DNA of 64,000 bases from Archilochus colubris. Its lineage: Eukaryota; Chordata; Aves; Apodiformes; Trochilidae. Numbering within the stretch: the first letter of the stretch is position 1; each line of letters opens with the position of its first letter. The stretch is from positions 176,842,480 through 176,906,479 of the forward strand of contig CM041083.1 of the NCBI GenBank assembly GCA_023079485.1. Reading direction: 5' to 3'. The translations under genes and the position numbers were made by a program. The notes under the pieces were generated by a model. The model worked only from the letters and a program-made list of their open reading frames with translations. It did no database searches and was not told where the DNA came from. Below are positions 3,735 through 3,755 of the stretch, in pieces.

Positions 3735-3743
3735 CTTAGAACC
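3735..3743 (-). CDS. NBEA: NBEA 9-nt microexon (Gly-Ser-Lys)
   Basis: Nine nucleotides, GGTTCTAAG, encode GSK (segment residues 1131-1133). An AG acceptor (minus-strand context GTCCAG) lies immediately upstream and a GTTAGT donor immediately downstream. The flanking exons end and begin on whole codons (...SAATSPT and TELENIEV...), so inclusion adds exactly three residues. The resulting SPTGSKTELENIEV matches what I recall for mammalian NBEA, which is what led me to search the intron. Just upstream are a TTGCATG (RBFOX-type) motif and a UGC 9-11 nt before the exon, in pyrimidine-rich sequence. Confidence 0.88.
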
Positions 3744-3748
3744 CTGGA

Positions 3749-3755
3749 CATGCAA
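3749..3755 (-). promoter_or_regulatory. RBFOX/SRRM4-type motif upstream of microexon
   Basis: The minus strand reads TTGCATG here, ending 6 nt before the microexon. UGCAUG binds RBFOX proteins, and a UGC near the 3' splice site in pyrimidine-rich sequence is the recognised SRRM4 (nSR100) context for neural microexons. That it functions here is inference. Confidence 0.55.

What the first reader, a model, noticed from the sequence alone, without database searches (positions are those of the whole stretch)
3735..3755. Nine-nucleotide microexon with neural splicing motifs
Between exons ending ...SAATSPT and beginning TELENIEV..., the intron contains AG|GGTTCTAAG|GTTAGT on the minus strand, adding GSK in frame. 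The exon is too small to show in gene prediction or open-frame scans. A TTGCATG lies 6 nt upstream, supplying both an RBFOX-type site and a UGC 9-11 nt from the 3' splice site, within pyrimidine-rich sequence. The donor GTTAGT is non-consensus at +3. Weak donor, tiny size and UGC context together are the profile of SRRM4-dependent neuronal microexons, which fits a neuronal scaffold. Whether this microexon is regulated in birds is inference.
Basis: partly seen in the sequence, partly recalled or inferred. Interest (0 to 1): 0.8.

Follow-up and report, generated by a model that had tools for sequence, protein, structure and literature searches.

The report
Neurobeachin microexon, longer in birds

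Summary
The window carries neurobeachin (NBEA) on the minus strand. Its 9,605-nt intron (11007-1403) holds a cassette microexon with acceptor AG at 3745-3744. A bare AG-9-GT frame is no evidence (25 in this intron, 27.6 expected), but this is the intron's only 9-nt candidate with both splice sites this strong. Protein models decide. In a search blind to the junction, 87 of 120 listed proteins skip the insert, 24 carry GSK (21 named mammals, 3 unnamed mammal-like contigs) and 7 carry GSKVSIAA (all birds). In a junction-centred search, 113 of 120 listed carry GSKVSIAA (57 named bird species plus two models shown as the window's own) and 7 carry GSKVSITA (one turtle). So the annotated bird exon is 24 nt (3743-3720, donor GTAAGT); nine nt is the mammalian form. 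A review says nSR100/SRRM4 promotes microexon inclusion in NBEA, without saying which one. UGC at -11 to -9 and a 68-nt AG-free zone fit an SRRM4 target; UCUC is absent, and the upstream UGCAUG predicts skipping by RBFOX. Neural inclusion in birds was not measured. The exon is known; the mammal/sauropsid donor difference is the fresh point.

The parts
11008..11161 (-). upstream NBEA exon (..LLSAATSPT), donor GTAAGT directly after it
1403..11007 (-). intron of 9,605 nt that holds the microexon
3746..3813 (-). 68-nt AG-free, pyrimidine-rich stretch before the acceptor AG
3749..3755 (-). TTGCATG: UGC at -11 to -9 (SRRM4-type) nested in UGCAUG (RBFOX-type)
   Evidence: sequence; roles inferred
3744..3745 (-). 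acceptor AG of the microexon
3720..3743 (-). 24-nt microexon GSKVSIAA, the form in the bird models
3735..3743 (-). 9-nt form GSK, the form in the mammal models
3729..3734 (-). inner donor GTTAGT
3714..3719 (-). outer donor GTAAGT
1222..1402 (-). downstream NBEA exon (TELENIEVTQ..)

Best explanation
This is a phase-0 cassette microexon of neurobeachin. Skipping joins SPT to TELEN. Inclusion inserts eight residues (GSKVSIAA) in birds through the outer donor at 3719, or three (GSK) in mammals. Shown: the sites in the DNA, skipping and including protein models in both lineages, and the 24-nt form in bird models. Inferred: inclusion is raised in neurons by SRRM4/SRRM3 acting on the UGC and the pyrimidine-rich AG-free region, and RBFOX at the overlapping UGCAUG would oppose it. 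The insert is at residues 1406-1413 of model P0184, between DUF4704 (461-940) and DUF1088 (1933-2099), with no Pfam family over it, so it most likely alters a linker or a protein contact.
For: Junction tallies: 24 GSK (mammals or mammal-like) and 7 GSKVSIAA (birds) of 120 listed in a junction-blind search; 113 GSKVSIAA and 7 GSKVSITA of 120 listed in a junction-centred one. P0184 and P0238, shown by the tool as the window's own, carry the 24-nt form; 1237 of 1241 residues of P0184 277-1517 lie in exact 7-mers of the window's minus strand. Three of 12 mRNA-like mammalian contigs include GSK and nine skip. UGC at -11 to -9; AG-free zone 68 nt against 18-52 for seven other NBEA acceptors. NBEA is named as an nSR100-dependent microexon gene (PMC7545264).
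Against: No bird RNA was seen; models can copy each other. The inner donor scores no worse than the outer one. No UCUC. UGC also starts at -5 and -8 of two other NBEA acceptors, and nine AGs on this strand combine UGC near the site with an AG-free zone of 50 nt or more. UGCAUG upstream predicts skipping. The paper's NBEA microexon may be the 18-nt MINTTG. The SRRM (PF15230) search of this genome did not complete.
Confidence: 0.75

Rival explanations
1. The bird exon is the nine-nt GSK exon, and the 24-nt edge is minor or mis-set.
For: Inner donor scores 4.43 against 1.85 in a recalled matrix and -6.2 against -4.9 kcal/mol with U1; mammals use the nine-nt form.
Against: None of the bird models with an insert that I saw has GSK alone: 7 of 7 and 113 of 113 have GSKVSIAA. 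The listings are capped and the second ranks towards the long form.
Confidence: 0.07
2. Birds use both donors, 15 nt apart, giving GSK or GSKVSIAA in a tissue- or factor-dependent ratio.
For: Both donors are in frame and of similar strength.
Against: No bird model with GSK alone was seen.
Confidence: 0.12
3. The exon is real but is not an SRRM4 target; it is a cassette governed by other factors, or included at similar levels in all tissues.
For: No UCUC; UGC is common near acceptors here; the review does not say which NBEA microexon it means.
Against: Size, frame, UGC place and AG-free zone fit; NBEA is on the nSR100 list.
Confidence: 0.2
4. There is no exon: chance splice-like letters in a long intron.
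For: 25 open AG-9-GT frames occur in the intron, as expected by chance.
Against: These letters are translated in models of many birds and, in the short form, of mammals.
Confidence: 0.02

Closest known systems
Mammalian NBEA GSK microexon (9 nt)
   Same: Same place between SPT and TELEN, same first three residues, skipped in other isoforms.
   Different: Ends at the inner donor; birds and a turtle are annotated with 15 nt more.
SRRM4 (nSR100/eMIC)-dependent neural microexons
   Same: 3-27 nt, in frame, UGC just before the 3' splice site, pyrimidine-rich region with a long AG-free zone.
   Different: No UCUC; the UGC lies inside UGCAUG; SRRM4 dependence and neural inclusion in birds untested.
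RBFOX-regulated cassette exons
   Same: A UGCAUG next to the exon.
   Different: It is upstream, the repressing position, and none was found downstream in the 250 nt scanned.

Membership tests
SRRM4-dependent neural microexons | length 3-27 nt, multiple of three, cassette | tested here: met
   9 or 24 nt, phase 0, skipping and including models
SRRM4-dependent neural microexons | UGC close upstream of the 3' splice site | tested here: met
   UGC at -11 to -9; not specific: also near two other NBEA acceptors
[quoted passage not shown]
   no UCUC within 150 nt; 0.68 pyrimidine over 37 nt, and PMC12626420 allows 'similar polypyrimidine tract' (passage)
SRRM4-dependent neural microexons | long AG exclusion zone (described for fly eMIC exons) | tested here: met
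   68 nt, reached by 0.84% of 4,179 AGs on this strand; 18-52 at seven NBEA acceptors (PMC8797185 passage)
SRRM4-dependent neural microexons | inclusion in neurons, lost without SRRM3/SRRM4 | not testable with these tools
   no bird RNA-seq; review statement for NBEA only
SRRM4-dependent neural microexons | eMIC (PF15230) protein encoded in the same genome | not tested
   ten requests unanswered
RBFOX-enhanced exons | (U)GCAUG in the downstream intron | tested here: not met
   only GCATG from 150 nt upstream to 250 nt past the 24-nt exon is at -10

The most novel reading that the evidence does not exclude
Mammals close this neural microexon at the inner donor (GSK) and birds and turtles at a donor 15 nt further on (GSKVSIAA/GSKVSITA), so the neuronal forms of orthologous neurobeachins differ by five residues through a donor shift; and the UGC nested in UGCAUG makes the 3' splice site one element for which SRRM4 and RBFOX would compete.
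Probability: 0.35. Interest if true: 0.45.

Novelty: already known. Interest (0 to 1): 0.3.

Why it matters
Microexons are easily missed or given a wrong edge, and this one lies in a gene that PMC7545264 lists among transcripts aberrant in autism. The bird and mammal models differ in donor, which would be a natural test of how the 3' edge of a neural microexon is chosen. The exon itself is already in public protein models.

Tried and rejected
PDB sequence search with the junction: no hit. AlphaFold2 on P0240, a skipping snake fragment, with a 15-row alignment: mean pLDDT 32.8, unusable; no fold search was made on it. An exon scan with recalled matrices was too strict; tblastn with P0184 replaced it. 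A protein search limited to short proteins, meant for fragment-level bird evidence, gave 2 hits, both skipping. Three acceptor coordinates were off by one base; one search gives the right ones. Bird-mammal DNA conservation could not be tested: states that the genome has no relatives here. Paper searches for NBEA or neurobeachin with microexon, splicing, SRRM4/nSR100 or RBFOX, and for microexons in birds, listed no paper that by title or abstract describes this exon in birds; the listings were capped at 20 of 33, 30 of 191 (14), 15 of 97 (35) and 10 of 111 (49), and supplements could not be read. Rejected: reading the AG-9-GT frame alone as evidence, since it occurs as often as in shuffles.

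Full report
What is there. The window's minus strand carries neurobeachin exons. Protein P0184, which the tool lists without name as encoded by the window itself, aligns exon by exon from 63049 down to 3. Of its residues 277-1517, 1237 of 1241 lie in exact 7-mers of the window's minus-strand frames; four single residues do not. At least one of these (S1033) lies inside an exon, and P0184's contig is 198.2 Mb against 200.2 Mb for the window's contig. P0184 may therefore come from another assembly, or a very near relative. Its Pfam make-up is that of neurobeachin. The intron between the exon ending SAATSPT (11008) and the exon starting TELENIEV (1402) is 9,605 nt. At 3745-3729 it reads AG|GGTTCTAAG|GTTAGT, once in the window, with TTGCATG at 3755-3749. 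Fifteen bases beyond the inner donor an in-frame GTAAGT (3719-3714) closes a 24-nt frame, GSKVSIAA.

Is it more than chance? The bare frame is not: 25 open AG-9-GT frames in the intron against 27.6 (sd 5.4) in 200 first-order shuffles. With both sites at least as strong as here it is the one 9-nt frame in the intron, and 1 of 200 shuffles had any. For 3-27-nt frames as good as the 24-nt one, 29 of 200 shuffles had at least one (matrices typed from recall). The letters alone are suggestive, not proof.

Protein models. A search scored only on the downstream exon listed 120 of 3,037 passing proteins. At the junction, 87 read SPT-TELEN, 24 SPT-GSK-TELEN, 7 SPT-GSKVSIAA-TELEN, one lizard model has another sequence and one partial starts inside. 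Of the 24 GSK rows, 21 are named mammals (Microcebus murinus, Muntiacus reevesi, Meles meles, two Rattus, two Mus species). The other three are unnamed 'lgn' contigs whose sequence further downstream is of the mammalian type. The 7 GSKVSIAA rows are birds: Spizaetus (a cluster of 121 members), Struthio, four Morphnus isoforms, Ciccaba. The skipping rows include both birds and mammals. A second search, scored on 40 residues around the 24-nt insert, listed 120 of 1,050. Of these, 113 have GSKVSIAA: 57 named bird species (hand count from the listing) plus P0184 and P0238. The other 7 have GSKVSITA, all Gopherus flavomarginatus. That list ranks towards the long form and was cut among near-ties at about 2,939 residues, so it says little on how common other forms are. 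A third search, limited to short proteins, found two, both skipping. How the models were made was not seen; many carry NCBI 'isoform X' names, others are UniRef or partial entries. From general knowledge, such NCBI models use RNA-seq and protein alignments, so they are not fully independent of each other.

RNA-level evidence. Twelve 'lgn' entries are contigs of 6.5-11.0 kb coding for 1,626-2,972 residues. The window's exons alone spread over 60 kb, so these contigs are most likely spliced RNA (inference; the tool does not define 'lgn'). Three include GSK and nine skip; all twelve have mammal-like sequence. For birds I have models only.

How it most likely works. The exon is a phase-0 cassette. 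The stretch before the acceptor is AG-free for 68 nt, against 18-52 nt at seven other NBEA acceptors; 0.84% of 4,179 AGs on this strand reach that. UGC stands at -11 to -9. Fly eMIC-dependent exons show UGC near the 3' splice site, long AG exclusion zones and UCUC (PMC8797185, passages). [quoted passage not shown] Against a strong reading: UCUC is missing, UGC also starts at -5 and -8 of two other NBEA acceptors, and nine AGs on this strand combine UGC near the site with an AG-free zone of 50 nt or more. A review states that nSR100 matters for microexon inclusion in NBEA (PMC7545264, section 16); the primary papers are not held. The variable 18-nt insert MINTTG elsewhere in NBEA leaves open which microexon is meant. 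RBFOX upstream of an exon promotes skipping (PMC12064062, passage), and no GCATG lies within 250 nt past the 24-nt exon. If RBFOX acts here it should oppose inclusion.

The donors. The inner donor is not clearly weaker than the outer (4.43 against 1.85 in the matrix; -6.2 against -4.9 kcal/mol with U1). The outer one equals the upstream exon's donor (-4.9). Sequence alone would not pick the 24-nt form; the models do. Whether birds use both is open.

Verdict. The exon is real as far as annotation can show. It is already in public protein models; the paper searches named under Tried and rejected listed none describing it in birds. The difference in donor between mammals and birds plus a turtle is the point worth following.

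Noticed in passing
P0184 against P0238, near residue 1803 (outside the window): A variable six-residue insert MINTTG (18 nt) and a 32-residue insert differ between the two models shown as the window's own; MINTTG is also present or absent among mammal models.
   Followed up: partly
window 9296-9954, 7574-7616, 17438-17736: Repeated stretches (for example 141 nt at 9651-9791 and 17438-17578, 82% alike) sit in this and another NBEA intron; they look like CR1 retrotransposon ends, a label from recall only.
   Followed up: partly
P0005 (Phrynosoma platyrhinos model): A lizard model has a different insert (VGDDVLDFLFK) at the same junction; possibly a mis-prediction.
   Followed up: no
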